NCBI GenBank assembly: GCA_003024785.1
Contig: PUQB01000206.1
Span: 186,001 to 250,000 of the forward strand
Source of the DNA: Selaginella tamariscina
Taxonomy: Eukaryota > Streptophyta > Lycopodiopsida > Selaginellales > Selaginellaceae
DNA length: 64,000 nucleotides
Direction of reading: 5' to 3'
How positions within the stretch are numbered: position 1 is the first letter of the stretch; each line of letters opens with the position of its first letter. Position numbers and translations under genes: made by a program. The notes under the pieces were generated by a model, which saw only the letters and a program-made list of their open reading frames with translations, had not been told where the DNA came from and did no database searches. Positions 2,551 to 57,044 of the stretch are shown here, piece after piece.

Positions 2551-2626
2551 TTTGGGAACTCTGGAAAGTAAACACACAAGTCAATTGATGAGGAGTCAAA
2601 ATAAAAAAACAAACAAAGATGACTAA

Positions 2627-3612: not shown

Positions 3613-4090
3613 TTGGGCGCTGCACGAATCGAGTCGAAATGGATGGCGCCGCAGTGGAAACCGTAACTCTGAGATCTGAGATTGAAGAAACCCTCTGGAT
3701 CTGCCGCAGTGGAAACAGATCTGAGATTGAAAGAACCCTAGCCGCAATGGAAACAGTAAACCCTATCTACCAAAAAACCCTAGCCGCAATGAAAACAGTG
3801 AACCCTACGGAATAAATGTGACATTAATATTTAGGGTTTATTTTAAAATATGTGAATAATTGGTAAATGTGAAGATATTTCAAATCATAAAAGGTAGAAA
3901 TTAAATTAAATCGGTGATACTAGAGAGGACATCATTAAGAACACTGTGAACTGGGCAGCATAGAATTAATTATATACAAACGTGTATTCACGTTTATTGT
4001 TAACGATTGTAATTTTTTTTTGGTAAGAGAAAGTGTGTTTAATCTTTTGCTTTGCTTTCCTAAACCACCGAGCTTTCTCCTTGCGTTGTC

Positions 4091-7000
4091 ATGGCCAGAG
4101 TTACCTATGAAGGCATTGACAAAGATTTCCCAGTCGATGAAGATGGAAATGCTTTTGTGTTTGAACATGATCTTCACATTGCTTTCAACATTCCTTGTTG
4201 GTTCAGTATACATGTGGTTCAATTGATGTCAGTTTCTGCGAGTTCTGGAGAAGATGTGGAGTTGTTACCAGAAGGCAATGCATCAAACCAGTTTGTCTTT
4301 TACACATTGTGCCCGGCAAAGGGCCCGTTGTTCAGGTTGCGGACAGAGGAGCGTGAGGAATCCATGCTGGTGTGTCTTCTAAGAGCAGACAAATGTAGGA
4401 TAGGGAAGGATCTCATTGGTTCGTCTGAAGTTAAACGAGTCTCTGAACTACCGCAGATATACAATGGAAATGTCATTTTCGAACTTCCCCCTAAGACAGA
4501 AAGCACAGAGAAGTACTCGGGGATGAATCGCAAGGATGGCTGCTACCATTGGACACACCCGAGCACAACACACTGGCATGTTCCGGCGCGAGTCAGTCGA
4601 AGTTCATGTGTCGGACATCTCCAATGCATCAATCCTACTGCCCCTACTTGGCTTTTGAGAAGAAAGCAAATGAATGTCACTTCAAGGGTGCTGTGGAGAA
4701 GGCAAAGACAACTGAGACAGGCAAAGTAATAGGCATAAAATGTAAGCATTGTGGAGAGGAGCCATTGCTGGTGCACACTTGTCCGGCTTATGTGTACTAC
4801 ATTCTGCCAGACGACATTTCTTTTACAAGGTTGTTCATTCACAGAGGTGTTCATCAGCATCCAGTCAGCCCCTCAGTGTCAGCTTCAAACGTTCAGCGAG
4901 CCAGATCTAGTGTCAGCAACGTGGTAAAGAGCAGTCCGCGAACCAATCAACGAGTGATTGAGTTTCAAGCCGCGCGTGAGCTCATCTTTGAAGAACTTTT
5001 CAAGGAAGAAGGAGAAGTCTCGTACACTGGTTTACTCTCAAAACTTGAACCTCTAACAAACCATCGAAGGTATTTTTTTTAGATCTCTACACACTGACGT
5101 GACCTTTTCTTTAGGACTCGGGACTGGATTACACAATCAAGACAGAAGGAGACACACTTTAGAGAGGGTTACGAGGGTCTTCTGGAGCTGAAGACAAAGC
5201 TGCCAATACCTTTCATTCACGTCATACATGTTCCAGGGATGGAACTGCATGGTGCTGAGGAGCAGCCTCTGATCTTCAAAATGACAGTTGAGGGACCGGG
5301 TTCAGGAGTTGAGTACATCAGAAGGTGTCAAAGTGGAGGAGACCTTCATGATCAATGGGTTGTTCTGGACCACACGCACCGCATACCAGACTGGGCGACA
5401 ATTGGAATACACCTTTATGACCCATTGTAAGTTGTAAAACTCTTCATAACACTTTCTAATCTTCGTTATCTAACGCTCTCTTGCAGTGTCAGATCCATGG
5501 TGACTATAGCTTACGCAGATATGTGCCGCGAAGATAATGTTGCAGTGCTGAAGTTCTTGAACACAATGCTAGAGGTTTGTAAGAAGCAGGGTTTGGAGAA
5601 TGTCAACTTTGCTGGTTTCATGTCGGATGAGGCTGGAGCGATATGGATAGCCTTGCGCCAAGTATTCAACAACGGAGCAAAGATGAAAGGGAGGGAAAGA
5701 AGCTGTCTGTTTCACTTTATGCAATCTGTGCGTCAGGTGACAAAGAAATGGATCGCAGAAGAACATCGCGAAGAACACATGAAGCTTGCTCGTGCCTGGC
5801 CTGCAGCACTGAATGAACAATCTAAGAAAGAACAACTGGCAATTCTCGAGTCTTTTGGGAAGGACGAGCGTCAAACATTCGAGCTTTGAAGACATGGCTG
5901 TCTTGGTGGATCAGGCATGAGGACCACATCTCCATGGCGGAACTGGGAGACATGACAGAAGAAGGACTCGCGAGCGTTCCAACTACAAACAATGCTGAAG
6001 TGATTCACGCGAGAGCAAGAAGAGCAAGATTGGCCAAAAGAGTACCACTGCTGGAGGCGACAATGTTAGACCTCACCGATGCAGTTATGCAGAGTGCGAA
6101 GGTGAAAGCGGCAATAGAAGGGAGGTATACAGGGTCAGGGCCTTCGAAGGAAACTCTGTTGAAACGAGTGCAACGCAAACTCTCTGAGGGGAAAAGTGTA
6201 TCTCCATCAACAATTATTAATCTGGTGGAAGGCGAGGAACACTTGACCAGCCCGGAGTTCACGTGTACCACTAACGTTCGAGTGCAAACTGTTAGGAGAA
6301 CAGTCACAGGAACAGAACAGTCTGATGCTCGACGTTCACACAGACATGATGTAGAGTACACAGAGCGGGTGGTCCAAAACAACAGGAGAAAGAGGTTAAG
6401 GTTCGAAGAGGTTTCGGAGAGAGAGATTGCTCAAACAGAGTGGGCCATCAGACGAATCGGAGCATCCAGTAAGGTTAAGTGTTTGGGGATGAATCAGGAA
6501 GGAACTGCTCTGTGTGGAAAACCAATCGGTTATCCAAGCAGAGTGCCAGCACCAGGATTCTATGGAAAACGAATGTACATTGATGCCTTGGGGAATGAGG
6601 AGTATGTACAACAGATGATGTGGTTCTGCCCAAAAGATTCAGGGTGTTTCACGCGGCCAAACGGCAAAATTCTTCGGTCACGTATTCCAACACCACCAAC
6701 GGTTTGGCCTGTGCTCAAGGAAACGAAGCTGACAAGTGAGGAGGTCAGAGAACTACAGGATGCAGGCTTTGTTCTGGAAGGTTTACAGGGGATGGCAGGA
6801 AGAGTAGATGAGGGTCAGAAGGACAAAACACCATCGCCACCACGTGGAGCTGGATCTACAACAATTCCACCTTTCGAAGGACGTATGGTTCGGACTCCAA
6901 CAAAAATGTCTAAGGAACAAGAGAAGAATTTCCGCAAGGCCAAGACGTTTTTAGGTTGTGTGCGAAATGTTGAAGTGACAGCTAGAGGACGGAAGGAGGC

Positions 7001-7253
7001 TTTCGTTGTGTCGGCAGGAAATGACTCTGCAAAGGTGACTATTAATACTTATCCTTCATGCAGTTGTTCTACATTTCAGAAGAGCAAAAGTTGGAGCCCA
7101 TGTGTACACATGTACTTCGTCTATAGCCGTGTGCTTGGCTTGAACCCGGAAGTCACATATTTTCTACAAAGGCGATCGCTCAGTGACATGGAGGTCCACC
7201 GTTTGCTGGTGAATTGCAACAGAGTTCATGACCCACCGGTGCTACAAGGATAA
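4091..7253 (+). CDS. MULE transposase with SWIM zinc finger, copy 1
   Basis: The start ATG is at 4091. Exons are 4091-5069, 5115-5426 and 5487-7253. In order: an N-terminal region, a Cys/His-rich segment (KCKHCGEE and HRGVHQHPV) like the WRKY-GCM1/FLYWCH-type fingers common in MULEs, then a transposase core with VLDHTHRIP (first Asp), GFMSDEAGA (second Asp) and CLFHFMQ (the CxxH typical of MULEs). A second Cys-rich stretch follows (KCLGMNQEGTALCGKP, MWFCPKDSGCF). The C-terminus carries a SWIM finger, CSCSTFQ...SPCVHMYFV, near 7055-7120. The protein should cut and join the element ends. A single-base loss near 4650 relative to copy 2 breaks exon 1. A second break, at the CTTTGA around 5885-5888, is shared with copy 2. 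Identity of the family is firm; the exact catalytic Glu is not assigned. Confidence 0.85.
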
Positions 7254-7467
7254 ATGGTTTAGGGTTTAGGATAATGTCTTATTAAGCCAGTCGGCATATA
7301 TTAAGCCAGTCGGCGATATTAAACCAGTCGGCATATTAAAAAAACTTATATATTCTAGAATATTCTTGAGAATATGCTAGAATATGCTAGAATAACCCTA
7401 GAATATCCGCGAATATACTAGAATAATATGAAGCCTCCTGAGCCGGAGCTCCTTTTCGCCGAGACCC
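7254..7467. repeat. Right terminal region of copy 1: CCAGTCGGC motifs and terminal inverted repeat
   Basis: Just after the transposase stop there is a telomere-like GGTTTAGGGTTTAGG, then three CCAGTCGGC motifs (7287-7295, 7306-7314, 7324-7332). Next comes a run of GAATAT/TCTAGAATAT words, and finally the terminal inverted repeat AGCCTCCTGAGCCGGAG...GGCGAGACCC ending at 7467. The motif core matches the arms of the central array. Confidence 0.8.
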
Positions 7468-8674
7468 TCATTTGATGAGCCCGTATCATCTATTTGTCGC
7501 GAGTCTGAGCCTCTTTCTAAGCGAGATCAATCAGACGTTTATGTTGAATTTTTTTGAGAAGATAAGTCATTGCTGCCTCCACTTCAGATGCGTCTGTAAA
7601 CTGACTTGTGATCTCCAAGGACCTGAAATGTTGTAGTCATCACTTTCGATTATTTGTTTGCCCATCGCAGCATAAAAACCGCTCATTGCTAATCCTCCAG
7701 CGGAGAACCTTTCCACCCGCGGATCACAATCGGGGTTTGCTCAGAGCGTCCATCACCAAGCCCAGCAGACACCGCACCAAGCCCAGCAGACACCGCACCA
7801 AGCCCAGCAGACACCGCACCAAGCCCAGCAGACACCGCAAGCTGCCTGATTACCTCCAACTCCATGGCACCCGGCACCAGAGCAAAATGACCTAGACGCA
7901 ACGTAGCGGGATCCAGACCCCACGAACCAGCAATGATGGCAATCGGGAAATCGGCGGAAACCACAGCGATTCATCTCCCCCTGCAACATCGGAAACCCTA
8001 ACTAATATTGTCCTTTCAGAGTTTTTAAACAGGCGTAAGCAATGGGCTGCTTCTGCTCCTCGGAATGTGGAGCAAGGACGACGAGCAATCTAGTACAACA
8101 CCAAGTGCACGAAAGCAGTAGAGGTAAAAATATGTGCTTAGGCAGCTGGGTAGTGTTAGGAGGTTGTCGTGGTGAGAGCGGCTGCAGCAGTGTGGAGTGT
8201 CGAATTTGAGAAGGTAGAGGAGTTAGGTCGAGTAGGGTTTGAGCAGGTGCAAAAGACTGAAGACAGTGAAATTGGGTAAATTGTTTTGTGCGCCAGGGTG
8301 AGAATCGCAAGTGGGCAGTGGTAAAAGGCAAGATCTGGCAAGGAATCACGGCGAGAAGCAGATTTAGTTTTGGGAGGTGAACAGGGTTTTAGGTTCATAA
8401 TTAAAAACAGGGGCGTTAGGTCAGGGTTTTGTGGTACGGCTGTGTGTTAAGGGAAGGAGCAGAGCACGATCAGTAAGAGGAGGAGAGCGCATTCGAGTGA
8501 GAAGAACGGTGGTGCTCGCAGGAGGTAAGCATAATACACATATATGCAACACGTGGTCCTCTTAGCAAATTGAGTCAACATGTATGCCTTGTTGGGAGGT
8601 CATTCCGAACTAGAGGAAAGATAAGGGGAAACGGTATATGCTGGTGTGATCTGTTGTTGATGCTAGAGTTGGCC
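7468..8674. other. Unassigned sequence right of copy 1
   Basis: No convincing gene is seen. A minus-strand open frame at 7689-7964 runs through a short tandem repeat and has no recognisable domain. The 8.0-8.5 kb part has overlapping open frames on the minus strand without family features. It could be an old gene or transcript flank, but I cannot support one. Confidence 0.4.
7756..7839. repeat. 21-bp tandem repeat, four units
   Basis: The unit CCAAGCCCAGCAGACACCGC plus A repeats four times without change. On the minus strand it would encode AVSAGLG repeats, but nothing around it shows that this frame is used. Confidence 0.9.
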
Positions 8675-12164: not shown

Positions 12165-13663
12165 TTTAAGCAAAGATAGCACTTACCTTTTAAAAAATCC
12201 ACCCCTGATTTTAATGTTCCAGTTATATTATTAGTTAATCCATATGAATTCGGCATGTTAAATAGGGTTAGGAACCCCTAGGGTTGCTCTAACCCACGTT
12301 TCTTAAAATCTCCACCCCCTGGGTAGGGTTTAGGGTAGGAGTTAATAGATTCAAATTAAAACTTTCTCTTGACTAAGGGGCTAGCATTCTATGCCAACCC
12401 ACTTACAACATATAGGAAAAGAGGGGGGAGCGAGGTTCCATCACATAAATAAGGTAAGGTATATGTAGAAGAGATCCTAGTTCATGATTGAGTTTGTTAC
12501 TCTTCTACCGATGCAAGCTCTATCTTGTGTCATTAAGGCACAACTCTTTGTTGTGCCGCTCTAACTTCCAACTAATAAGGGTATGTCCCACCTTCAAGGT
12601 AACCTACCTTTAACGTTGGCAAAATCCATGACTGAAAGTCTTGTCGGAATGCACGTTCCAAGGGACAAAGGTTGAGGCATATCTCCAGCCTTCTCCTCCA
12701 CATCAAGCTAAGTGTAACATTCACAGCTAAGTAAGACACATTCGTGTCCTTGTCCAACTATGAACGTGAGGTCTTTACTAACGAGTTTTCATTACCAAGT
12801 TCCAAAAGGGTTTTGGAATTGGCATTTAGGAGCCACGTTCATGGCACTTGGTGTAATTTTTGAATTTAAGGGGCAATAGCATGGTAATCCACATCGTGGA
12901 CATAATGTCATGTGAAGATGTGACACTAAGCTAGACAACTCACAATATAATGCTTGAGGCACGCTCTTTTGGGTTGTGTCATGGATTGTCGCCAAGAGGT
13001 TGGATACTCTAACAAGGGTGTTAGCCTTAGGCATCCGCTCAAGGAAGGTTATGTCTTGTAATTAGGTGTGTTTTGACACACTTGGCTAGGGGGTGTTCTC
13101 ATTGGAATTTAGGGATTGAACAACTTTAGCTTGTTATAATGAGCCCTTTCGTGAGACACTCGCAAGGTCATGTACTTAGGATTATCCAAACTTAGCCTTA
13201 GAGAGTTTCTTTAATAAAACACTCGTGCTTGCATACAGCGCACACTCGTGTCTTCACTAAGTACTAATCCTAATTCTAGGTATGACTTGGCCACTAAAAC
13301 CCTTAAGCGTTAGCCGTACCCTTATCACCCTAAAAAGGTTGTACTATTAGGGTGATTCCTCAAAGGGTAAGTGACGATATCTTAACTTTGTCACAAGAGT
13401 ATGTGTAAGACACATCTCCTTAATGAAGTTAAAGCATGAGCCTGTTTAGGTCTACTAGGACAAGATCTTAAAATTACTTGAGCTATCCTCTAGGTTCATG
13501 GAATAGTCATTCTAGAGGACTTATAGTAGGACTTTGAGTCTTCTGCCTAATTAGGCATCTAAGTTAGACTATTTAAGGTCATCTTAACATTGTTCACACA
13601 AGGTGATGATGCTAGATGGCCACTTAACAACCATGTTTGGCCCTTCAAGTTAAAATTTTAACA
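12165..13663 (+). mobile_element. Degraded solo LTR of a Ty3/gypsy-type element
   Basis: This is the reverse complement of the units at 53706-59623 and has the same sense as the 5' LTR at 59624-60577. It ends TTAAAATTTTAACA at 13663, equivalent to GGTAAAAACTCGACA at 60577. The left end is indistinct near 12165. No internal region adjoins it. Fossil, strongly diverged, old. Confidence 0.65.
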
Positions 13664-14896: not shown

Positions 14897-15527
14897 GAAT
14901 CCCGCCAAAAAGGAGGCTCATATTTAATTGAGAATATTCTAGAATCTTCTTTGAATATTCCCTAGTCGGAAAATTTTTACAAATTTTCATACTATTGGCT
15001 AGAATATTCCATGGTTGGCATAAGTCTTTAAAGGAGTATTTTTTAAACATGTTGCCATTGTGGACTTTAATTAGTTCACACATATATATATTGCATATAT
15101 ATTGAAAACTTGCATAAATAATATACAGTAAAAACACTAGTATATTAATATTATTATTTTAAAAACATATAGCTTAAATATTATACAATAATGAATTAAT
15201 CATGATATTAATAACTAGAGACATCACATACATATTCTGGCTCACATTTGACTATATATTTCTTTTCTTCTTGAACATCAATGTGATCCTTGATCCTACA
15301 CCTTGTGATGCATAATGGTTAAATCGGTAACTCGTCAAGTCTAATGTCACTTGCAATTCAAGTGTTGGCAATCCTCGCTAGCTCAAACGACCTTTATGTC
15401 CCAACATGTTTTTGCTGAGGTTAATGGTTGTAACAAGAGAGGATCTTGTCGCTAAGCCTATATCCCAAACAAGATTACCTTGCCTAATAAGTTGTTTGAT
15501 CACGAGATGCATTAGCTACACTCTCTT
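14897..15527. mobile_element. End of an old relative of the ParB-methyltransferase MULE
   Basis: GAATCCCGCCAAAAAGGAGG at 14897 aligns with the terminal repeats of the young copies (GAGTGTCGCC...GGAGGC and GGGTCTCGGC...GGAGGC). It is followed, as in the left end of copy 2, by GAATATTCTAGAAT words and a TAGTCGG motif. The methyltransferase fragment at 15385-15527 lies next, in the orientation and order seen in copy 2. The rest of this relative is lost or overwritten by the remnant at 15740-16450. Confidence 0.65.
15385..15527 (-). pseudogene. Methyltransferase motif I fragment of an old relative
   Basis: The minus strand reads LMHLVIKQLIRQGNLVWDIG and then SSLVTTINLSKNMLG. This aligns with LMQLLIERLSRPGDLVWDIG and SSLLAAVELGRNIIG of copy 2 (19506-19803). 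It carries two internal stops and has lost the glycine-rich SAM loop (LATRSS against SGTGSS). It is a decayed gene of the same transposon family. Confidence 0.75.
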
Positions 15528-15739
15528 GAGTTATAAAAAAAGCATGCAAATTTGGAATTAATAAGAAATTGGAGTAGGAAATCTCTTAATAGTGGTTTGA
15601 TAAATCCATGACGATTGTACAACCTAGTTGAAGGGGATTGTTAATTGGTACATTTATGAAAGCTTGGAAAAACATCATAACTAGAAGAAGCTCTTAGAAA
15701 AAGAATTTTGTTAATTATAACAAGAAAATATCGCTTCCA

Positions 15740-17470: not shown

Positions 17471-17973
17471 CATTCCTTGTCCTATGCCTGAGTCAAGCTT
17501 CCTTGTTCTTGGATTGTGGCTTAACACAAGGCACTTTAGTGTCGTAATTAACTTTGGAATACTTGTCTTTAAATTGTCCATTTTGTCATAAATCAAACAG
17601 AGATAGTCTGATGGCATTAACATGAAAAGCATGTGACTTGCATAGCATTAGGAGCAACAAGTTTGTGGAGCAATCATGTGGTCCTCCATCTTTTTTTGAA
17701 TGACAACAATTTTCATTAATGTATTTACACATACATCTTCAGTTTTAAGTGACATACAAGTATCACATTTAGAAAAGTTGAAGTGCTTTTAAATTGTCAC
17801 ATCTTTGAACTAAGTGTTTCATATGTTATTAAATGTTGCACTATAGATTTTTTGAAGCCCCATCAAATTAAAGCACTTATTCACATGTTCACACAACTTT
17901 AATTGAATGTAGATTAATGGTAAAACCTTTAAATTTTTTATAACACATGCATTTGTGATACAACATTTCTAAG

Positions 17974-19302
17974 TTCATCTTCTCTATGGAACCAACCAAA
18001 TTCTTGGAGGTTGATGAGATAGCTCGGAGAATAATATGGAGGTAACATATAGCTTCTTCTTTAAATTGAGTTGACTTTAACATATGTAGTGTATGTAGGT
18101 ACTCGGTGGCAAAAAGTGTGCCTCCATCCTCAAATATGAAGATGTGGATGAACCATAAAAGCCAACCTCATATGTGGTCCAAGTTATATAGTGCGTTGAC
18201 CAAGTTCGAGAGAACAAATGCACCTTTTTTGCTGGATTTTCCTCAAGGGGAGCTATTGGCATGGGAACAAAACTTGTACAATGAACATGCAAAATATCTT
18301 CCAGAGCAGCCAAAAGAGGTGGATCTCATAATGAAGTCAAAAAACAGGCAGAGTTCCACACAACCTATGAGGAGAAAACTCGACCCTTCTATAAGCACTT
18401 CTGGGCCTACAAGAGAAGCAAATACGTTCAGTCTAGGTGATATCCAACCCCCGGCCGCATGTATTAACATCAAAGACAACCTCTTTTCTATGTTCCAACA
18501 TTAGCTACAACCCGAGGTGCATATGATTGTACTGTCTACAACATCGAAGATATGTGTAGGGCATTTTTTGTGGATCATACGGGCGACTTTTAAAGATGTA
18601 CACGAAGTTGAGAGCCGAAATTGACAAGCAACACACAGTAGACGCTTAATTAAGGTTTCTTGAGGAAGCAAGCGAGTTTAGATTCAACTTGATCCTCATC
18701 GACTTGCCCAACAAGCTACAACTAGCAGCACACAACTACAATAGGAATATGATCTTTCTAAACCCACTAAATTTTGATGAGGCAATACAACTTGCGGGTA
18801 TGCACATGGCGATAATGGGCTGCTTGTTATCTTTGTGGCAACGATGGCTATTGTTAGAGTTGTTGAAGCAGCTAAAGAAATCGATCTCCAACTTGGTGCA
18901 ATGTACAATGTGTACCAAGGGCATGGTTGGGGATTTTGAAATCACATGAATGTAAAGTATTTCATTTAACCATTTGGCATGCTAATATTTCTCATTTTTA
19001 TCCTTAGGAAAACCTTCTTATTCTACTTATTTTCGAAGCATTTGGGAGAGACATTAGACCAAATTCCATTGAACTAAGGTTGACCATCCTTGTCTACATG
19101 TCAAATCGCTTTCAACAGTCATGGTAAATTGTTTTCCTTGACTTATTGTCTTTGCATACTCTATGTCCAACCAAAGAGTGTTCGACTAATGCATATAATT
19201 ATTGAGCATTTAAGTAGATTTGGTGATCTTGTTTGGGACATAAGCTCCGATACATTTCCTCCCTAGTTGCAGCTACTAATCTTGGGATGAATATTATGGG
19301 AA
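17974..19302 (+). pseudogene. Old relative's ParB-methyltransferase gene, split by copy 2
   Basis: The plus strand aligns with the copy 1/2 gene over several exons. FSMEPTKFLE...ARRIIW keeps the same splice site after the Trp codon. MWMNHKSQPHMW...FPQGE aligns with LWTDHTSEPHMW...CPSQQ. TKLRAEIDKQHTVD leads into FNLILIDLPNKL. DLVWDIS...NIMGMEK follows. The frame is broken by stops and small indels. The last residues reappear at 28027-28185, beyond copy 2. It lacks a recognisable ParB part. It proves the family has been in this genome long enough to decay. Confidence 0.8.
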
Positions 19303-19311
19303 TGGAAAAAA
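19303..19311. repeat. Left target-site duplication of copy 2
   Basis: TGGAAAAAA, identical to 28018-28026. Nine base pairs is the usual MULE duplication length. Confidence 0.9.
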
Positions 19312-19505
19312 GAGTGTCGCCATTTTGGAGGCTTGGGGCCCAGGAGGCCTGGGCTCGAATATTCAAGAATATTCTAGAATATTTTGGAATATTCTTTCTG
19401 GTCGGCAGTATTGGCCTCAGTCGGCAAAAAAGAATTCTATTAAAACTGTTGTATTTCTTTTTATTTTTTTTATATTAGCTTAATTTATTACTCAATATAC
19501 ATTAG

Positions 19506-22500
19506 CTAAAGTTTCTTCTTCATCTTAAGTAAAGCTGCAGTTCTCGAACCACCAGTTACGCTTGGACGTGGAGGTGTTTGAGTAGGTAACTCTTCTGGTC
19601 TAATGTTCTCTGCAAGCTTGTTTGTTGCCAACCTAGAGAGTTCGAAACTCTTCTCGGTTCCTATAATATTCCTTCCGAGCTCGACGGCAGCTAACAATGA
19701 TGACCCGGTTCCGGAACCAATATCCCAGACTAGGTCGCCAGGTCTACTGAGACGCTCGATCAAAAGCTGCATGAGTCGAACACTCTTCGGTTGAATCATA
19801 ATCCTGCACAACTTCCATTAGGATAAACATAAGCAAAGTACTTCCTTACCAAGCCTCCTGATAACGGTCGGCAGTGTCGACGAGGATCGTGTTCGTCAAC
19901 GCCAGAGGGTTTGGCCTCTTCGACTTCTTCTCAGAGCTTTGCAGCACCAAGAGAACTAACAAGTTATCCTGCCACATAGACCAAGTTAAACTTGAACTTG
20001 AATAGCTAGCTTACCTTAATTTTGTCACGGTATCCCCAGCCTCGTGCACGGTAGACGCTGTAAGTCCCTGCAACCTCCAAGTTGATTACTGCAGCCGCCT
20101 GAATCACCGCCGAAACAGAAGGAGAACTCGCGAAGACGACCATGAAACCACTCGCTGCCAAGTGCATTCCACTGAACTGCAAGGCCTCCTCAAACTTCAC
20201 CGGATCTAGCTGCACAATGTCCTTGTTGATGCTAGCACCTCCATATACAAGCTCATTGGGCAAGTCGAGGATGATGAGGTTGAAGCCGTATTCACCTACC
20301 ACTTCCTGGAACACGTTTGTGACTCAACCGTATGTAGTCTGTCAACCTGTTTCGGAGCTTGGTGTACACCTCTGTCTGGGAAGCACCTGGCTCGAAGAAA
20401 GACCTGCTCATCTCCTCCATGTCGCACACAGCTAGGTCGTAGGATCCACGGGATGCAGCCAGGGTCGGGATGAAGGTCATCAGGTCGTCCTTGATGTCCA
20501 AACTAGCTACAAGTGGCTGTACCTCATTGATTGTAAAGTCGAATGCCGGCGGAGGTGCTGTAGAAGAGCTTGGTCCCGCTCCCGATCCCTTTGCAGGTGT
20601 AGTTGTCTTCCGCACCGTCTTCTTCATCTTGCTCTTCTTGATAGCCTCTACTTCTTCTGGCTCCCAAACAATCGCTGGTAGATCATTGGCGTGCATGTCG
20701 AATAGTGTGCTCTCCCAAGCTGGTGGCTGTTGCGACGGACAGTCGAGCCAGAATGGAACATGCTCCCGTTCGAACGGTGTTAGAGCTCCTCTGCTCTTCG
20801 ACCACATGTGAGGCTCGCTTGTATGATCTGTCCACAGCTTCATCGTATGGGACGGTGTCATTTGCTTCGCCAGTATGAACCTGCAACACAAAGTCAGACA
20901 GTAGCAATGCTGGATTGAAAGCTTACCTCCATATCATCCGACGCGCAGATTCCTCACGCTCCAGAAACTCATTCGGCTCCATCGAATAAGTGAACCGTAT
21001 GCAGTCATGGAAGGGCTGAAAGACCAGGCACTTGCTCCGATTCTCATCTCGTCAAACCAGCTCATGAAGTCGACATCCGTTCCAACTTCTTCACCATCCT
21101 CTCGCAACCCCTTAAGGATCTGAATGGCTTCCTCGCGCACAGCCTTCCAATATAAGTCCAAGGTGAACCACTTGATCCACTCTTTGTCCTGCATGCCCGG
21201 TAGCCCAAGTGTCTGTTGTTCTGCCTTGGATTCGAGACGGGTGAGCTTGTTAGGTATCGGAGTCGCAGCATGTTTGGAATCTTCGCCCTTGACATCGCAT
21301 ACAGCTTCTCAATGCCCATCCAGCGACACTGCTTATGAGAGATGTTTGTCACCTTCTGGAACCACTCCTCCCCCAAGTCTGGGTCTATGATGGAGAGGAA
21401 CTTGTGCATACGCTTGTCATGCTTCTTGTACACTAGCTGCTTCAGGTTCACCTCAACCTGTGGATTGCCCTTAGCACTGGTGACTGCTCTGTCGAGATCA
21501 TCGTCGATCTCGTTCTGCACATAGAATAAGTTAAAAATTTCTTTCCTATAAATTAAATCGGAGGTTACCTTGAAAAGATCTTTGCGCAGATCAGGTTCGG
21601 AAGAGGATGCCAAGCCGTCTTTCCTGATGAACTCTCCTTCCACTTCCGCACCTCAAGACGATCAACCTCCGTGAGTGACTCGAGGATTTTCTGAGTTCCT
21701 TCTGTACTAGTGCAGACCGCCTTTACAGCGAGGAGAATATGTGGTAGCGTTGTTTCCACAGATGTTGCTGAAGATCTGTTCAACGAAACTGTAAGTCTAA
21801 ACTCTTAACAAAAAGAAAAGAAAATACTCACATGTTAATCGATTGGAACATCGAAACCAGTTGAAGAATGTCGAGGTTCTCCGTGGAGATGAAACTCGAT
21901 CGAACGCGAATAGCCCATCGCTGGTTGTCCTCTGCATCCTCTCGGTACAGCTTCTGCAAAGCCTGTAGCCTATGGTTCCCGTCCCAGCAGCTAAACTTCC
22001 TGTTTGAGAGCCTTGAAGCCCACTGTTTGTACTCCGGCTGAGTAAGAGCTTGCTCGAAAGACCGGTGCTGCTCGTACTGAATCGTGTCCTTCGACAGCTC
22101 CGATAGCTCCTCAGCAGTGAGTCGATCTCCGATGGACAGAATGAACAAGGCCGTGTTGCGTAGATAACCAGCCTTCTTCAACGATGACACCAGCCTGTCC
22201 AAGTCCCCTGGGTTCACTCGTCGAACCACCTCGTTGGAATGTATTCTGCAGATGGGCACATCAGGAGGATCACCAAGTCCCTTGATAGTAATTTTGTCGA
22301 GCAGGTTTGCTGAGCTCTCCAAATGCAGGCTCGCCGGTATGCTGTATAACTCCTTCGGCTCCTTATCGCTCTTCGCCTTCTTGCCTTTTTGAATCAGCTT
22401 TCCCGCGGCCTCTCTTTTTGCTGACTGCCTCCTCCAAGTCGTCCTCGCTAGCTTCAGCTGCCTCTGTCATCTGCACTTGCTCGTTCAGGACTGCAACCTC

Positions 22501-22727
22501 AGCGGATGAAGGAGGCAACTGCGACGAGCTCTCCGGGAAATCTGTGATTGTTGGTGGAGGCTGTTCTTGCTCAACTGCTACTACTCCAGACTGAGTCACT
22601 GGAGGATCCTCCTTTGTACATTAGATGGTTCTCCTCTCTTGCCTCGCTTCTGCTTCGATATCCTCTTCTCTTCCCGTGGCTCTTCATCAGGCGCAGTCTC
22701 TAGTAGACGTTTTGAAGCTCTCACCAT
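19506..22727 (-). CDS. ParB-like domain / DNA methyltransferase fusion, copy 2
   Basis: This copy shows the whole gene. Start ATG 22725-22727, stop TAG 19506-19508. Introns of ~46-56 bp include 21776-21831, 19969-20014 and 19804-19849. After the ParB-like domain and the middle region comes a beta-class methyltransferase core: FNLIILDLPNEL (motif IV), a region equivalent to the pfam01555 linker, then IQPKSVRLMQLLIERLSRPG and DLVWDIGSGTGSSLLAA...LGRNIIGTEKS (motif I, the SAM loop). Motif IV before motif I is the permuted beta order. The catalytic tetrad usually DPPY is DLPN here. Against copy 1 there are about seven single-base indels: near 22615, 22386, 21576, 21250, 21040, 20351 and 20312. 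Function on DNA, for example marking or protecting element ends, is inference. Confidence 0.82.
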
Positions 22728-22802
22728 TTTGGAACTCTGGAAAGTAAACACACAAGTCAATTGATGAGGAGTCAAAATAAAAAAACAAACAAAGATGACT
22801 AA

Positions 22803-24160
22803 CCTTGTGGCTGCCGACTCAAGCTAGATGCTGCCGACCCTCTCAGTCGGCAGAGAGATGTAGAAGAAAAACCTGCCGACTGAGATAGTTTGTGCCGACT
22901 CTGTCAGACGGCACAGAAGAGATAATGGTGCCGACTGAGATAGGATGGTGCCGTCCCTCTCAGACGGCACAAATGGGAAGACCCATTAACTGTTTTAAAA
23001 GAAATACTTGAGACGCAAAGAAAAAAAAAACTAATTCAAAATACCTTGTGGCTGCCGACTGAAGAAGGATGGTGCCGTCACTCTCAGTCGGCACAAATGG
23101 GAAGACACTATAACTCTGAAAAAAAACATTGTTATACGGATACTTGAGCCGCAAAGCAAAATATAACAAATTCAAAATACCTTGTGGCTGCCGACTGAAG
23201 AAGGATGGTGCCGTCACTCTCAGTCGGCACAAATGGAAGACATTAACTCTGAAAAAAAACATGTATACGAATACTTGATCCAGCAAAAAAAAACAAATTC
23301 AAAATACCTTGTGGCTGCCGACTGAAGAAGGATGGTGCCGTCACTCTCAGTCGGCACAAATGGGAAGACACATTAACTCTGAAAAAAAAATTGTATACGA
23401 TACTTGAGCAGAAAGCAAAAAAACAAATTCAAAATACCTTGTGGCTGCCGACTGAAGAAGGATGGTGCCGTCACTCTCAGTCGGCACAAATGGAAGACAC
23501 ATTAACTCTGAAAAAAAACATGTTATACGGATACTTGAGCCGCAGAGCAAAAAAAACAAATTCAAAATACCTTGTGGCTGCCGACTGAAAAGGATGGTGC
23601 CGTCACTCTCAGTCGGCACAAATGAGAAGACACATTAACTCTGAAAAAAAACAATGTGATACGAATACATGATCCAGAAAGCAAAAAATAAATATATCGA
23701 ACATACCTTGTGGCTGCCGACTGAACAGGATGGTGCCGTCACTCTCAGTCGGCACAAATGGGAAGACCCATTAACTCTGAAAAAAAACCTTGTGATACGA
23801 ATACTTGAGCCAGAAAGCAAAAAAAAACAAATCGAAAATACCTTGTTTTTGCCGACTGAACCAGGATGGTGCCGTCACTCTCAGTCGGCACAAATGGAAA
23901 GACCCATTAACTCTGAAAAAAAAACATTGTGACACGTATACTTGAGCCGCAAGGAAAAAAATAAATAAATCGACGATACCTTGTGTTTGCCGACTGAACC
24001 AGGATGGTGCCGTTGCTCTCAGTCGGCACAAATAAGAAGACCCTATATCTCTGGAAAAAGAAATACATTGAGCAGCAAATCATAAAATACAGAAATTACA
24101 CATACCTTGTGGCCGCCGGCTGAGCAGGATGGTGCCGAGAATCTAAATCGGCACAGAAAT
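22803..24160. repeat. Tandem hairpin array of copy 2, about 10 units
   Basis: Unit starts lie at 22803, 23044, 23180, 23307, 23437, 23570, 23705, 23841, 23979 and 24105. Structure is as in copy 1, with three extra units of the GAAGAAGGATGG type between 23180 and 23705. The flanking units match one-to-one between copies, so the array has expanded or contracted by whole units. Confidence 0.9.
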
Positions 24161-24650
24161 CTCCATTGTTATACTTGGGCGCTGCACGAATCGAGTCGAA
24201 ATGGATGGCGCCGCAGTGGAAACCGTAACTCTGAGATCTGAGATTAAAGAAACCCTCTGGATCTACCGCAGTGGAAACAGATCTGAGATTGAAAGAACCC
24301 TAGCCGCAATGGAAACAGTAAACCCTATCTACCAAAAAACCCTAGCCGCAATGAAAACAGTGAACCCTACGGAATAAATGTGACATTAATATTTAGGGTT
24401 TATTTTAAAATATGTGAATAATTGGTAAATGTGAAGATATTTCAAATCATAAAAGGTAGAAATTAAATTAAATCGGTGATACTAGAGAGGACATCATTAA
24501 GAACACTGTGAACTGGGCAGCATAGAATTAATTATATACAAACGTGTATTCACGTTTATTGTTAACGATTGTAATTTTTTTTTGGTAAGAGAAAGTGTGT
24601 TTAATCTTTTGCTTTGCTTTCCTAAACCACCGAGCTTTCTCCTTGTTGTC

Positions 24651-27600
24651 ATGGCCAGAGTTACCTATGAAGGCATTGACAAAGATTTCCCAGTCGATGA
24701 AGATGGAAATGCTTTTGTGTTTGAACATGATCTTCACATTGCTTTCAACATTCCTTGTTGGTTCAGTATACATGTGGTTCAATTGATGTCAGTTTCTGCG
24801 AGTTCTGGAGAAGATGTGGAGTTGTTACCAGAAGGCAATGCATCAAACCAGTTTGTCTTTTACACATTGTGCCCGGCAAAGGGCCCGTTGTTCAGGTTGC
24901 GGACAGAGGAGCGTGAGGAATCCATGCTGGTGTGTCTTCTAAGAGCAGACAAATGTAGGATAGGGAAGGATCTCATTGGTTCGTCTGAAGTTAAACGAGT
25001 CTCTGAACTACCGCAGATATACAATGGAAATGTCATTTTCGAACTTCCCCCTAAGACAGAAAGCACAGAGAAGTACTCGGGGATGAATCGCAAGGATGGC
25101 TGCTACCATTGGACACACCCGAGCACAACACACTGGCATGTTCCGGCGCGAGTCAGTCGAAGTTCATGTGTCGGACATCTCCAATGCATCAATCCTACTT
25201 GCCCCTACTTGGCTTTTGAGAAGAAAGCAAATGAATGTCACTTCAAGGGTGCTGTGGAGAAGGCAAAGACAACTGAGACAGGCAAAGTAATAGGCATAAA
25301 ATGTAAGCATTGTGGAGAGGAGCCATTGCTGGTGCACACTTGTCCGGCTTATGTGTACTACATTCTGCCAGACGACATTTCTTTTACAAGGTTGTTCATT
25401 CACAGAGGTGTTCATCAGCATCCAGTCAGCCCCTCAGTGTCAGCTTCAAACGTTCAGCGAGCCAGATCTAGTGTCAGCAACGTGGTAAAGAGCAGTCCGC
25501 GAACCAATCAACGAGTGATTGAGTTTCAAGCCGCGCGTGAGCTCATCTTTGAAGAACTTTTCAAGGAAGAAGGAGAAGTCTCGTACACTGGTTTACTCTC
25601 AAAACTTGAACCTCTAACAAACCATCGAAGGTATTTTTTTTAGATCTCTACACTGACGTGACCTTTTCTTTAGGACTCGGGACTGGATTACACAATCAAG
25701 ACAGAAGGAGACACACTTTAGAGAGGGTTACGAGGGTCTTCTGGAGCTGAAGACAAAGCTGCCAATACCTTTCATTCACGTCATACATGTTCCAGGGATG
25801 GAACTGCATGGTGCTGAGGAGCAGCCTCTGATCTTCAAAATGACAGTTGAGGGACCGGGTTCAGGAGTTGAGTACATCAGAAGGTGTCAAAGTGGAGGAG
25901 ACCTTCATGATCAATGGGTTGTTCTGGACCACACGCACCGCATACCAGACTGGGCGACAATTGGAATACACCTTTATGACCCATTGTAAGTTGTAAAACT
26001 CTTCATAACACTTTCTAATCTTCGTTATCTAACGCTCTCTTGCAGTGTCAGATCCATGGTGACTATAGCTTACGCAGATATGTGCCGCGAAGATAATGTT
26101 GCAGTGCTGAAGTTCTTGAACACAATGCTAGAGGTTTGTAAGAAGCAGGGTTTGGAGAATGTCAACTTTGCTGGTTTCATGTCGGATGAGGCTGGAGCGA
26201 TATGGATAGCCTTGCGCCAAGTATTCAACAACGGAGCAAAGATGAAAGGGAGGGAAAGAAGCTGTCTGTTTCACTTTATGCAATCGTGCGTCAGGTGACA
26301 AAGAAATGGATCGCAGAAGAACATCGCGAAGAACACATGAAGCTTGCTCGTGCCTGGCCTGCAGCACTGAATGAACAATCTAAGAAAGAACAACTGGCAA
26401 TTCTCGAGTCTTTTGGGAAGGACGAGCGTCAAACATTCGAGCTTTGAAGACATGGCTGTCTTGGTGGATCAGGCATGAGGACCACATCTCCATGGCGGAA
26501 CTGGGAGACATGACAGAAGAAGGACTCGCGAGCGTTCCAACTACAAACAATGCTGAAGTGATTCACGCAGAGCAAGAAGAGCAAGATTGGCCAAAAGAGT
26601 ACCACTGCTGGAGGCGACAATGTTAGACCTCACCGATGCAGTTATGCAGAGTGCGAAGGTGAAAGCGGCAATAGAAGGGAGGTATACAGGGTCAGGGCCT
26701 TCGAAGGAAACTCTGTTGAAACGAGTGCAACGCAAACTCTCTGAGGGGAAAAGTGTATCTCCATCAACAATTATTAATCTGGTGGAAGGCGAGGAACACT
26801 TGACCAGCCCGGAGTTCACGTGTACCACTAACGTTCGAGTGCAAACTGTTAGGAGAACAGTCACAGGAACAGAACAGTCTGATGCTCGACGTTCACACAG
26901 ACATGATGTAGAGTACACAGAGCGGGTGGTCCAAAACAACAGGAGAAAGAGGTTAAGGTTCGAAGAGGTTTCGGAGAGAGAGATTGCTCAAACAGAGTGG
27001 GCCATCAGACGAATCGGAGCATCCAGTAAGGTTAAGTGTTTGGGGATGAATCAGGAAGGAACTGCTCTGTGTGGAAAACCAATCGGTTATCCAAGCAGAG
27101 TGCCAGCACCAGGATTCTATGGAAAACGAATGTACATTGATGCCTTGGGGAATGAGGAGTATGTACAACAGATGATGTGGTTCTGCCCAAAAGTGTTTCA
27201 CGCGGCCAAACGGCAAAATTCTTCGGTCACGTATTCCAACACCACCAACGGTTTGGCCTGTGCTCAAGGAAACGAAGCTGACAAGTGAGGAGGTCAGAGA
27301 ACTACAGGATGCAGGCTTTGTTCTGGAAGGTTTACAGGGGATGGCAGGAAGAGTAGATGAGGGTCAGAAGGACAAAACACCATCGCCACCACGTGGAGCT
27401 GGATCTACAACAATTCCACCTTTCGAAGGACGTATGGTTCGGACTCCAACAAAAATGTCTAAGGAACAAGAGAAGAATTTCCGCAAGGCCAAGACGTTTT
27501 TAGGTTGTGTGCGAAATGTTGAAGTGACAGCTAGAGGACGGAAGGAGGCTTTCGTTGTGTCGGCAGGAAATGACTCTGCAAAGGTGACTATTAATACTTA

Positions 27601-27802
27601 TCCTTCATGCAGTTGTTCTACATTTCAGAAGAGCAAAAGTTGGAGCCCATGTGTACACATGTACTTCGTCTATAGCCGTGTGCTTGGCTTGAACCCGGAA
27701 GTCACATATTTTCTACAAAGGCGATCGCTCAGTGACATGGAGGTCCACCGTTTGCTGGTGAATTGCAACAGAGTTCATGACCCACCGGTGCTACAAGGAT
27801 AA
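24651..27802 (+). CDS. MULE transposase with SWIM zinc finger, copy 2
   Basis: Start ATG 24651 (GTCATGG); exons 24651-25630, 25674-25985, 26046-27802. Exon 1 is open here where copy 1 has a lost base, giving INPTCPYLAFEKKANECHF and the second Cys pair KCKHCGEE followed by HRGVHQHPV. The transposase core and SWIM finger are as in copy 1. Compared with copy 1 it lacks single bases near 26285 and 26570 and eight bases near 27193 within the second Cys-rich stretch. It shares the CTTTGA break at about 26444. Length over ~1000 codons is normal for an autonomous MULE transposase. Divergent from the methyltransferase gene across the array, so both are probably driven from the array region. Confidence 0.85.
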
Positions 27803-28017
27803 ATGGTTTAGGGTTTAGGATAATGTTTATTAAGCCAGTGGGCATATATTAAGCCAGTCGGCGTATATTAAACCAGTCGGCATATTAAAAAAACTTATAT
27901 ATTCTAGAATATTCTTGAGAATATGCTAGAATATGCTAGAATAACCCTAGAATATCCGCGAATATACTAGAATAATATGAAGCCTCCTGAGCCGGAGCCT
28001 CCTTTTCGCCGAGACCC
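27803..28017. repeat. Right terminal region of copy 2
   Basis: Same layout as 7254-7467: telomere-like GGTTTAGGGTTTAGG, three CAGTCGGC-type motifs (the first with G for C), the GAATAT-rich block, then the terminal repeat ending GAGACCC at 28017. Confidence 0.8.
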
Positions 28018-28026: not shown

Positions 28027-28185
28027 ATAAGAAGCTCGCAAAATTTGCACTTAAAGAAGCTCGACAAGAACATCACACCTAAGCCAATGCAGATTGAGCC
28101 ACCTCCACCTCCAAGCCACAGCGGCGGATCGAGAATTGTTGAAATGCTACGCACAAGAGGCAGATATGAGTTTTTAATGTTTTAA
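28027..28185 (+). pseudogene. C-terminus of the old relative's methyltransferase gene
   Basis: The plus strand reads KKLDKNITPKPMQIEPPPPP then SHSGGSRIVEMLRTRGR. This aligns with NKLAENIRPEELPTQTPPRP and SVTGGSRTAALLKMKKK at the end of copy 2's gene. It joins the pseudogene ending at 19302 when copy 2 and one duplication are removed, apart from a shift in the A-tract. Confidence 0.8.
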
Positions 28186-36977: not shown

Positions 36978-37872
36978 TGCACTGCAGGCATGCAGAAACT
37001 TAACTCAGGAAATGAGGTTTCAAAGCATACGACTCCTGAAGCAGTAAAGGTAGGTTGCGGATTTGTTTCCTAACAGTTATATACGAACCTAAACTTTGTG
37101 TAGGAACTAGATGTTTCGGAGGATGAAAAGGGTGAGAAGATGTTCAACGTCTTGGACACGGTAAAGCGGTGTGAAACTTGAAACTCTTGTTCTCGATAAG
37201 GATTCATTCACAAGGACAGCAGCAAATATATTGACATTAACTTTTCTACTCAAGGATGGCAGGGCAGAAATCAGTAAAACCAAGGACGGCACCTACTTCA
37301 TCAGTAAGCTTTCATCACACGTGCACGCATATAACACTGATGATTTGCTTATAAATAACATAACATGTCCATATTCGCTTTTCATTTCATGCTGTTATGC
37401 AGTTCCAAAAGCCGAGACTGAACCTTCTGATGAAGACAATACCAAGTTTATCTATCACTTCAACTACAAAGACTGGGAGGTTATTATTCAATTAAACTAT
37501 GCATATGGTATCTTTCTAAGTTTAAATACAATGAATAGATGGAGATACAGTCACACTATGGTTTTATAAATATCTATTGACGCACACATATACACTATGT
37601 AGTATTGATATCGATAGGCATACCCACACATGACATGTCTTGACATTTTACGTATACATACTATAAATATTAAATGATCGTCAAGCTTATAGATATTTTA
37701 TGTAAAAATTGAAAAATTAAGTTTTATTAAGTGAGACTAATAACCTGTACAAGTCATACATATCATTTGGCAGTTTTAAGTTCATTTGGTGGTGTACGGG
37801 AGGGCCTCTAGTTGCCCTCTTGATATTTGTAATAGATTTAGAAAACCAATTAAGTTATATATATATATATAT

Positions 37873-40626: not shown

Positions 40627-43600
40627 ATGGAGGAAGGCAGAAATGTTGTTGTTGTTTTGGTGTTGTTGTCATGGTGCCTTGTAGCCGCGTGTTCATCGGT
40701 GGATGAGGTACTCATCAGTCTCCTCAGCACAGCGCAGGGCAGTAGCAAGAGCATCCTGCCAACAGCTGGAACGTTTAACAAGCAAGCCTTGCTCCGGGTG
40801 GATGGGGATATCGTGCTCTGCGTCCGACCAAGTCACTGGGATATCGCTAGCATTCATGGACCTCCAGGCAAGCATCCCCCCAGAGTTTGGCCTGCTCTCG
40901 TCTCTTCACACACTCAACCTCTCCAGCTCCAACATCACCGGAGCAATTCCCCGAGAGCTCGGCAACTGCACTGCATTACGTGTCATTGATCTTCAGCAGA
41001 ACGACTAGTGGGCAAGATCCCAGAGGAGCTTGGTCGACTGCTCCTCCTCGAGGAGCTTCACCTCAATCAGAACTACCTGTCCGGGATCATCCCCGAGGGC
41101 TTGAGCTCGCTTGGCAAGCTCCGGATCCTACACATCTCGGACAACCACCTCACTGGTAGTATACCGCCGTGGTTGGGAGAGCTTCACAGCCTCGAAGAAG
41201 TCAAAGGTGGCGGTAACTCATTGACAGGTCCGATACCCAAAGAGATAGGCATGTGCACAAACTTGACTGTGCTCGGATTCGCAATGAACCTTCTCACTGG
41301 CGCAATTCCATCTAGCATAGGCAGTCTCTCCAGGCTGACGTCTCTCTTGCTCCACGATAATATCCTCACCGGCCCACTGCCTCCAGAGCTCGCAAATTGC
41401 TCCAGCCTTGTAGAACTCTCCCTGTTCGAGAACAAGCTGAGTGGTGAGTGGAATTTGTGATTAACCAGTGGGTGATCGTGAGCCAAGTGTGTGTCTTTTC
41501 ACAGGTGAGATCCCAAGCTCCTTTGGTCGGCTAAACAACCTGGAAGACCTCCAAGTGTGGAACAACAGTCTCGAGGGGAGGATACCGGCCCAGCTAGGAA
41601 ACTGCTACAGCCTGGTGCAGCTGGTTGCAGCTCAAAACTTCATTGTTGGGCCCATCCCCAAGGAACTGGGAAGGCTCAAGTCCCTCCAGTACCTGGACCT
41701 CAGCCTCAATGCACTGACTGGGGAAATTCCGGCTGAGATAGCAAACTGCACGTTGCTGGTCGACATTGAGATACAGTCCAACAACCTCACGGGGCACGTC
41801 CCCCCGAGCTGGGAAAACTCGACAACCTCCAAATTCTCAACGCGTGGGAGAATTCCATCACAGGCTCCATCCCTTCCACACTCGGCAACTGCAAGCGGCT
41901 CTTCCGTGTCGACCTCTCCAGCAACCGCCTCTCCGGTCAACTGCCAGAAGAGATACTCTTCCTCGACAACCTCACCTACCTCAACCTGTTCAACAACATG
42001 TTGACCGGTCCCATCCCTGAATCTATTGGACAGTGCATCAACCTGAGCAGGCTGCGGCTGGAGAAGAACATGATGAGTGGCAGCATCCCAAGAGCATATC
42101 CAAGCTTCCCAACCTCACCTTCGTCGACCTCTCCAACAACCGCTTGGTTGGTACCCTCCCAGAGGAACTAGGAAACTCATTGCAGATGCTCGACCTCAGT
42201 AACAACTTCCTCACCGGCCACATACCCAGGGGATTCGGAGGCCTGGTTGATCTCTACAAGCTTGACTTATCCTTCAACCTCCTCAATGGCACAGTCCCTC
42301 CACAGCTCGGCAACCTCAACGTACTGGAGTTGCTACGTCTCAATGCCAACTCCTTGTCTGGCTCCATACCGGCTGACCTCGCCCGCTGCTCCAGACTGAG
42401 CTTGCTTGACCTGGTAGAAACCGGTTGGCTGGTACCATCCCTCCCGCATTGGGTCTGCTGGAGAGCCTTCGTATGGGACTCAACCTGAGCTTCAACGAGC
42501 TCCAAGGGCCCATACCAAAAGAGTTCCTCCACCTCTCCATGCTCCAGTCCCTAGATCTCTCACACAACAACCTCACCGGAACTCTTGCGCCGCTCTCCAC
42601 TCTCCAGCTCTCATATCTCAACGTGTCCTACAACAACTTTAGAGGCCAGCTGCCGGATAACCCATTCTTCAGGAACATGTCTGCAAGTTCATACGCAGGA
42701 AACCCAGGGCTCTGTGCTACAGGCACTTGTAGTACAGGCACCGGAGGTCGGCGGCACACACCCGCAGGAGCCTCATTGCGGCGCTAGTCTCGCTTGGGCT
42801 GGGGCTCTTCATACTTATTGCTGCACTAGCCTGTGCCCTTGTGTCTTCAAAGCGCAATGGGAGCCGGCAATCCATGTGGAACACGGACGAGAGAACGGCT
42901 GGTGGTGCATGGAAGCTAACCACGTTCCAGCGTCTCAACTTTGTCCTCAGTGACATTCTGGACAATCTAGTGTCTACCAATGTCATTGGACGTGGAAGCT
43001 CGGGAACTGTATACAAATGCACGATGCCAACAGGGGAGGTTGTTGCTGTCAAGAGTCTGTGGATGTCAATCAAGGGAGAGTCGAGCACTTCTGGGGTTCC
43101 ATTTGAGCTTGAGATCGAGACCTTGAGCCAGATAAGCACCGTAACATACTAGGACTTCTCGGCTACTGTACCAACCAGGAGAGTATGCTCTTGCTATACG
43201 AGTATATGCCAAACGGGAGCTTGGCAGACATTCTACACGACCACAAGTCTCTCGACTGGACGGTGCGGTATAACATTGCTTTAGGAGCCGCTGAGGGGAT
43301 TGCCTATCTTCACCATGACTCACTCCCATCCATTGTTCACCGAGATATCAAGTCCACCAACATTCTCATTGACTCACAGCTCGAAGCTCGCATTGCAGAC
43401 TTTGGAGTTGCAAAGTTGATGGATGTTTCCCGCACTGCAAAGACAGTTTCCAAAATCGCAGGATCGTACGGATACATTGCTCCAGGTACATATTGTGTGT
43501 GTGTGTGTGTGTGTGTGGTACACATCATGCATAAGAATGTAGTTTTGATATGAGAATTGTCTCAGAATACGGCTATTGAAGATAACACCAAAGAACGACG

Positions 43601-50281: not shown

Positions 50282-50350
50282 GGCCCACGGCTAGTGCCTC
50301 CTTTCCTTTGCTCCCCACTTGACGGTTTCTTGCCAAGAAACAAGGCCTCG

Positions 50351-56794: not shown

Positions 56795-57044
56795 GCTTTA
56801 ACTAATTAGCTTAACTGGGACATCAAAATTGGGGGTGGGTTTTCTAAAAGATAAGTTCTAGCTTCATTTAGAGTTTCCTACAAATACCTAATAACACCTG
56901 ACCAGATCATCACCAAATACTTAAGTGCACTAAGCGGATCTGTTTCCTACTACATGTAGGGTCCATCAACATAGTATAGTAGGTAATAATAGTCAATGTG
57001 CAAAGTAAAGGGTTGAGTCATAATAAAAACTATGACAATGTGGA

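What the first reader, a model, noticed from the sequence alone, without database searches (positions are those of the whole stretch)
19312..28017. A MULE transposon carrying a ParB-like/DNA methyltransferase fusion gene
Seen: one element with MULE hallmarks (9-bp duplication, inverted ends, DDE/CxxH core, SWIM finger) and a second, divergent gene joining a GNHR-type ParB-like domain to a permuted pfam01555-type methyltransferase. Known: ParB-methylase fusions are common in phages and bacteria, and VANDAL-type MULEs carry an extra gene (VANC) that counters host silencing by binding short motifs in the element. Inference: this gene is an analogous accessory system acquired from a prokaryotic or phage source. 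I do not recall a described plant MULE with this cargo, but cannot check.
Basis: partly seen in the sequence, partly recalled or inferred. Interest (0 to 1): 0.92.

Follow-up and report, generated by a model that had tools for sequence, protein, structure and literature searches.

The report
Jumping gene carrying a methylase-like protein
A young and abundant jumping gene in what appears to be a plant genome carries, beside its own mobility gene, a second gene with a bacterial-type DNA-methylase fold and a set of short repeated DNA motifs, which may help the element recognise and protect or regulate its own copies.

Summary
The element is real. Window 19312-28017 is one 8.7-kb transposon: 9-bp target duplication, imperfect inverted ends, a three-exon transposase and, divergently, a six-exon 992-aa gene ending in a PF01555 methylase match. 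A second copy fills window 1-7468. The genome (300.7 Mb; size fits Selaginella tamariscina) has 126 exact left ends. A second family, dS-saturated, carries the same pair: 72 of 102 listed methylase exons have its transposase divergently 4-7.75 kb away. One copy per family compared, both genes show strong purifying selection. All 38 GCCGACTG sites in the window lie in the two copies, none of copy B's 22 in an exon: a VANC-like pattern. Corrections: the ParB label is weak (DGNHR plus sub-threshold superfamily hits; Pfam ParB_N finds nothing); the catalytic motif DPPY reads DLPN in all three families read, so ordinary methylation is doubtful; Pfam's MULE model misses this transposase. ParB-methylase transposon genes are already reported in brown, red and green algae (PMC12477816). 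I found no description of a land-plant, MULE-like, DLPN-type case in the papers searchable here.

The parts
19312..28017 (.). Complete element (copy B, family 1)
   Evidence: 9-bp TSD TGGAAAAAA, ends shared with other copies; 126 exact left ends in the genome
1..7468 (.). Second copy (A) of the same element, left part beyond the window edge
   Evidence: blocks 96.95% and 98.7% identical, same gene order; whole copy is L042
19312..19347 (+). Left terminal inverted repeat (about 36 bp, imperfect)
27982..28017 (-). Right terminal inverted repeat
21832..22727 (-). Cargo gene exon 1: charged N-terminus and ParB-superfamily-like region with CWDGNHRL
   Evidence: gene model; motif conserved in family 2
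21569..21775 (-). Cargo gene exon 2
20927..21514 (-). Cargo gene exon 3 (no domain matched)
20015..20880 (-). Cargo gene exon 4, with non-canonical motif IV DLPN
19850..19968 (-). Cargo gene exon 5
19506..19803 (-). Cargo gene exon 6: SAM-binding motif I (DIGSGTGSS), PF01555 match
22929..24155 (.). Tandem array of about 136-bp units between the divergent genes, most with two opposed GCCGACTG sites
   Evidence: 388 bp, about three units, shorter in copy A
24651..25630 (+). Transposase exon 1 (Cys/His cluster by eye)
25674..25985 (+). Transposase exon 2 (first D, VVLDHTH, by eye)
26046..27802 (+). Transposase exon 3 (SDEAG, CLFH, TTNNAE, SWIM-like CSC...CVH, by eye)
   Evidence: SWIM E 0.0086 and 0.04, below cut-off
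17971..19303 (+). Decayed relative of the cargo gene (family 3) into which copy B inserted; continues at 28045
28045..28158 (+). Remainder of the interrupted decayed gene
15325..15557 (-). Another decayed methylase C-terminus

Best explanation
The element is a young, multicopy MULE-like DNA transposon with a long-established second gene. That gene makes a protein with a ParB/Srx-like region (plausible, not shown) and a SAM-binding methylase fold whose catalytic tetrapeptide is replaced (seen at sequence level). I infer that the protein reads GCCGACTGA-type sites in the element's own control region and ends, rather than methylating DNA, and there opposes host silencing or tunes the two divergent genes, in the way VANC proteins act on VANDAL elements. 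Shown: structure, copy number, co-inheritance of both genes, purifying selection, motif enrichment. Inferred: binding of this protein to this motif, anti-silencing output, loss of catalysis.
For: Same divergent two-gene order in two families: 50 of 90 listed family-1 transposase places and 72 of 102 listed family-2 methylase places, with 1 pair in any other geometry; these lists are capped. Six segments, one copy per family: pooled pS 0.85, pN 0.24. Motif: 38 of 38 in the window lie in the copies, 0.76 expected. AGTCGGCA is the most frequent 8-mer of copy B (23 times, 0 in 47.8 kb outside), and 0 of 22 CAGTCGGC are in exons although exons cover 6023 of 8706 bp. Family 2 (one copy, 4.2 kb read) has three TGCCGAC sites just beyond the stop codons of its two genes. 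VANC21 motifs behave likewise: tandem, non-coding, changing in number (PMC5735166, passages). DLPN in families 1, 2 and decayed 3.
Against: No binding, expression or methylation data. The motif could be bound by the transposase. In family 2 only one site is the full GCCGACTG, and one AGTCGGCA in that 1.7-kb stretch is reached by 7 of 200 shuffles; the family-2 intergenic region was not read. I compared no VANC sequence. A dead catalytic site is inferred from one tetrapeptide; motif I is intact. At least 7 listed copies share the same broken first-exon pattern (89%, 2 TGA, 1 TAA; letters not read), four of them beside a transposase exon at 100%, so the protein seems not to be needed in cis.
Confidence: 0.45

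Rival explanations
1. The protein is an active N6-adenine or N4-cytosine methylase, steered by the ParB-like part, that marks the element's own DNA (the reading offered for the algal proteins).
For: PF01555 above cut-off; motif I intact, its segment the best conserved of the six (76% aa); profile match to four phage methylases, probability 97.5% over the SAM-binding half; published suggestion for algae.
Against: DPPY reads DLPN in the three families read: the aromatic residue and one proline are gone. The half with motif IV was not aligned to the phage profile.
Confidence: 0.25
2. It is a transposition accessory protein (a second subunit, or a regulator of excision or integration), and GCCGACTG is a shared transposase/accessory binding site.
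For: In copy B one site lies about 0.1 kb inside the left end and two about 0.15 kb inside the right end; fixed pairing with the transposase; copies with a broken cargo exon still multiplied, as expected if the product is supplied in trans.
Against: 19 of the 22 sites of copy B lie between the genes, 3.5-5.2 kb from either end.
Confidence: 0.22
3. The gene is a passenger: a captured host or foreign gene carried along (Pack-MULE style).
For: MULEs capture genes (known biology); decayed copies exist.
Against: Pooled pN/pS about 0.28 at saturated synonymous sites, and an open six-exon frame in 4 of 21 family-1 copies.
Confidence: 0.04

Closest known systems
ParB-like/N4-N6 methyltransferase accessory genes of algal transposons (Ectocarpus Sola1-1_Ec32; red and green algal elements)
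   Same: Large protein (1104 aa there, 992 aa here) described as ParB-like plus bacterial-type methylase, on the strand opposite to the transposase, inside a DNA transposon (PMC12477816, passages).
   Different: Sola1 in a brown alga there; a MULE-like element in a probable land plant here, with DLPN and a motif array. The passages do not say which red or green algal superfamilies carry it.
VANDAL elements with VANC
   Same: MULE-type element (recall) with an extra gene and short motifs in tandem non-coding arrays (PMC5735166, passages).
   Different: VANC is not, to my recall, a methylase or ParB fold; no sequence comparison was made.
Bacterial and phage beta-class N6/N4 methylases (MboIIA, CcrM, phage enzymes)
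   Same: SAM-binding half aligns.
   Different: DLPN for DPPY; a long N-terminal part; introns.
TET/JBP-carrying fungal DNA transposons
   Same: DNA transposons with a cargo gene acting on DNA bases (PMC12730594, search listing and start of abstract only).
   Different: Different enzyme.

Membership tests
Mutator-like elements (MULE) | Target duplication of about 8-11 bp | tested here: met
   Exact 9-bp TSD in 8 of 17 copies with both ends placed, 4 near-exact by eye, 5 none; 4 further copies dropped
Mutator-like elements (MULE) | Terminal inverted repeats | tested here: met
   About 36 bp, imperfect; 3 of 500 shuffles as good
Mutator-like elements (MULE) | Match to Pfam MULE transposase domain PF10551 | tested here: not met
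   No hit in the 1019-aa protein at E 10; 148 PF10551 matches in the genome, best 95 bits, none at the listed family-1 or family-2 transposase places (compared by eye)
Mutator-like elements (MULE) | DDE triad with CxxH and C-terminal SWIM finger | tested here: inconclusive
   Residues present by eye; SWIM E 0.0086 and 0.04, below cut-off
N6_N4_Mtase (PF01555) | Profile match above curated cut-off | tested here: met
   35.8 bits, cut-off 26.7, profile positions 164-219 of 221 only
N6_N4_Mtase (PF01555) | Catalytic motif IV (D/N/S)PP(Y/F/W) | tested here: not met
   DLPN in families 1, 2, 3; an insignificant CcrM alignment (-2.1 bits) puts DPPY opposite DLPN
ParB/Srx superfamily | Profile match to ParB_N PF02195 | tested here: not met
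   0 matches in the genome at E 10; control rings in 11 of 14 genomes
ParB/Srx superfamily | DGxHR/GERR box and a superfamily profile match | tested here: inconclusive
   CWDGNHRL in both families; with the insert left out DndB 0.031 and ddrB-ParB 0.07-0.21, all below cut-off, family 1 only, family 2 none; hhalign to DGxHR viral proteins 26% over 15 columns
VANC-type anti-silencing | Short motif in tandem non-coding arrays, specific to the element | tested here: met
   For the window and copy B; specificity across the genome not tested
VANC-type anti-silencing | Protein binds the motif and removes DNA methylation | not testable with these tools
   needs bench work
Algal transposon ParB-methylase proteins | Sequence homology of the whole protein | not tested
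   Algal sequences not in the collections at hand; red algal paper not held

The most novel reading that the evidence does not exclude
A bacterial-type DNA methylase fold has lost its catalytic motif and become a sequence-specific anti-silencing reader that co-evolves with a motif array inside a plant transposon: an unrelated, independent answer to the problem that VANC solves in Arabidopsis, kept through at least three gene families and accompanying two families with over 100 places each in one genome.
Probability: 0.28. Interest if true: 0.87.

Novelty: new variant of a known kind. Interest (0 to 1): 0.62.

Why it matters
Transposon-borne methylase proteins have been noted in algae; the passage I saw proposes a role without a test. 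Here is a probable land-plant case with many near-identical copies, a compact candidate binding motif, open reading frames and copies with a broken cargo exon. That makes the question 'do these proteins modify DNA or only read it?' directly testable.

Tried and rejected
Recent phage or bacterial capture: methylase queries hit phage enzymes over at most 39% of the query in the 30 rows listed of 103 records (31-43% identity). The ParB-like region found one irrelevant phage hit (E 2) and nothing in plasmids. Pattern-plus-tblastn scans of viral contigs and prokaryote genomes confirmed 0 of 137, 78, 107 and 257 stretches. They use few peptide patterns, so they exclude only close relatives.

Chance juxtaposition of two genes: rejected. 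Passenger gene: disfavoured.

Dead ends: a viral DGNHRL scan gave mixed proteins, several probably unrelated frames; P1 ParB was fetched and scanned but not aligned; phiRM10 gp46 is DUF4317, not ParB; the ParB-like exon has one PHROG hit of unknown function (0.0078). Family-3 decayed exons had no listed transposase of family 1 or 2 within 15 kb in divergent order (0 of 19, the query among them).

Corrections to my notebook: it says 9 of 17 exact TSDs; one search gives 8. The 20 full copies were drawn at random from the first 60 listed places with at least 99% ParB-exon identity, so describes young copies only (18 and 19 of 21 passed its length filter). The 126 left ends are ends, not elements: some contigs carry two opposed ones about 0.8 kb apart.

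Full report
What is there. Window 19312-28017 is a single element of 8.7 kb with a 9-bp flanking repeat. On the plus strand lies a transposase gene of three exons (1019 aa, open in 2 of 21 distinct copies). On the minus strand, starting 1.9 kb away, lies a six-exon gene of 992 aa (open in 4 of 21, 5 of the 21 not scorable). Gene models rest on frames and splice sites, not RNA. Between the genes is an array of about eight 136-bp units. A second copy occupies window 1-7468. Outside the array the shared part of the two copies differs by 5 substitutions, 17 indels of 1-2 bp and one of 8 bp. So many small indels beside so few substitutions suggest assembly errors; that is an inference.

The genome. 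The window is G000:C512:186001-250000 of a 300,702,823-bp, 1391-contig genome. The size fits Selaginella tamariscina, listed at 301 Mb in PMC8732986 (passage); the identification is an inference. A 34-base stretch of the left end (element bases 3-36) occurs exactly 126 times, with 0 for the reversed-pattern control. The first cargo exon was found in 128 places (all that were scored of 1788 candidates, 87-100% aa), the last transposase exon in 90 (of 2483). Within these capped lists 50 of 90 transposase exons have a divergent cargo exon 2.5-3.6 kb away. Median pairwise substitution between copies chosen for at least 99% ParB-exon identity is 0.31% over the cargo gene (18 copies) and 0.13% over the transposase (19 copies).

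More than one family. A decayed relative of the cargo gene lies on the plus strand at 17971-19303 and continues at 28045-28158: copy B jumped into its last exon. Searching the genome with a decayed exon gave 150 scored places of 1137 candidates: 19 of the decayed kind including the query, 102 of a second family (41-42% identical to the query, nearly all with the same or a close score) and 29 of family 1 (44-45%). I predicted a transposase some 5-7 kb from one family-2 methylase exon and read 1.9 kb there: it encodes a SWIM-type transposase 50-54% identical to family 1, frame-broken in that copy, while other family-2 places have open frames of 607 aa and more. With it as query, 72 of 102 family-2 methylase exons have a divergent family-2 transposase exon 4-7.75 kb away, against 1 pair in any other geometry (both lists capped). 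Decayed family-3 exons had none (0 of 19).

Selection. Between one copy each of families 1 and 2, six segments (two of the ParB-like region, three of the methylase region, one of the SWIM region) show pS 0.81-0.93 and pN 0.17-0.32. Both genes have been kept as proteins.

The methylase. The SAM-binding end matches PF01555 (35.8 bits), PHROG methylases, MboIIA and CcrM and a four-member phage profile (97.5%). Motif I is DIGSGTGSS. The place of motif IV reads DLPN in families 1, 2 and 3; an insignificant CcrM alignment places DPPY opposite it. I take ordinary N6/N4 methylation as doubtful, not excluded.

The ParB-like part. Pfam ParB_N has 0 matches in the genome even at E 10, while the control rings in 11 of 14 genomes; the full protein gives no ParB hit. 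CWDGNHRL is conserved in family 2. With the stretch between the two candidate boxes left out, the Pfam hits are DndB (0.031) and ddrB-like ParB (0.07-0.21), below cut-off and for family 1 only; family 2 gave none. DndB is called a ParB-superfamily protein in PMC10853773 (passages). So ParB-like is plausible, not shown.

The transposase. TSD, TIR, catalytic residues by eye and a weak SWIM match say MULE-like. PF10551 fails on it though it finds 148 matches elsewhere in the genome, so I do not file it as a proven MULE.

The motif. GCCGACTG occurs 38 times in the window, 16 in copy A, 22 in copy B, 0 elsewhere, 0.76 expected. The unbiased 8-mer count puts AGTCGGCA first in copy B (23 against 0 in 47.8 kb). 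None of the 22 in copy B is in an exon; 19 lie between the genes, 1 near the left and 2 near the right end. Fetched copies L025-L044 hold 11-22 each. In the 4.2 kb of family 2 that I read, GCCGAC occurs three times, each beyond a stop codon, against 7 in 47.8 kb of the window outside the copies; one of the three is the full GCCGACTG, and that alone is not strong (7 of 200 shuffles). The array is 388 bp, about three units, shorter in copy A. VANC21 of Arabidopsis binds a 9-base motif held in tandem non-coding repeats that expand and contract (PMC5735166, passages). The likeness is in how it may work, not in descent.

What is known. [quoted passage not shown] I saw neither of the two works it cites. 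So the kind is known. Listings of my searches showed no land-plant or MULE case: 'ParB, MULE, transposon, methyltransferase, plant' (2 papers), 'ParB, methyltransferase, transposase, Bostrychia', three of four (30 of 117 listed), 'ParB-like, transposable elements, fern' (7), 'Plavaka, red alga, methyltransferase, transposons', three of four (15 of 57 listed), 'Mutator-like, 6mA, DNA methyltransferase, transposon-encoded, ParB, green algae', four of six (1), 'ParB, DNA methyltransferase domain, transposons, algae' (1), 'ParB, Selaginella' (6). A word search of the MULE survey PMC6446971 and of a 2026 review on gene capture by plant transposons, PMC13317346, found neither methyltransferase nor ParB. 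The library lacks most subscription papers, so this is not proof of absence.

Verdict. A real, young, abundant transposon with a stable, selected second gene of a kind known from algae, in a new element type and host setting, with a degenerate catalytic motif and a matching motif array. Most likely a DNA-reading anti-silencing or regulatory protein (0.45), with active self-methylation (0.25) and a transposition accessory (0.22) as rivals.

Noticed in passing
1-7468: A second near-identical copy of the element with the same gene order; no target duplication was found for it (L042).
   Followed up: yes
17971-19303 and 28045-28158: Copy B inserted into the last exon of a decayed gene of the same kind as its own cargo; chance or target preference unknown.
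   Followed up: partly
G000 C111, C447, C448, C449:948283, C475:438658, C660:221542, C866: Seven listed copies share the same score and stop pattern in a broken first cargo exon; four sit beside a transposase exon at 100%. Letters not read.
   Followed up: partly
19358-19405 and 27900-27975: Clusters of GAATATTC palindromes just inside both ends, also seen at the family-2 end (L046).
   Followed up: no
53700-59624 and 12386-13663: Several 1.3-1.5 kb units about 75-87% alike, one inverted: an unrelated repeat family.
   Followed up: no
37165-37566: Exon of an Nse4-like SMC5/6 subunit (PF08743, 6.8e-14).
   Followed up: no
40685-43923: Leucine-rich-repeat receptor kinase gene with frame breaks (read by eye from the ORFs).
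   Followed up: no
49667-50290 and 62749-63144: Remnants of a copia-type element and of a reverse transcriptase (sub-threshold Pfam hits).
   Followed up: no
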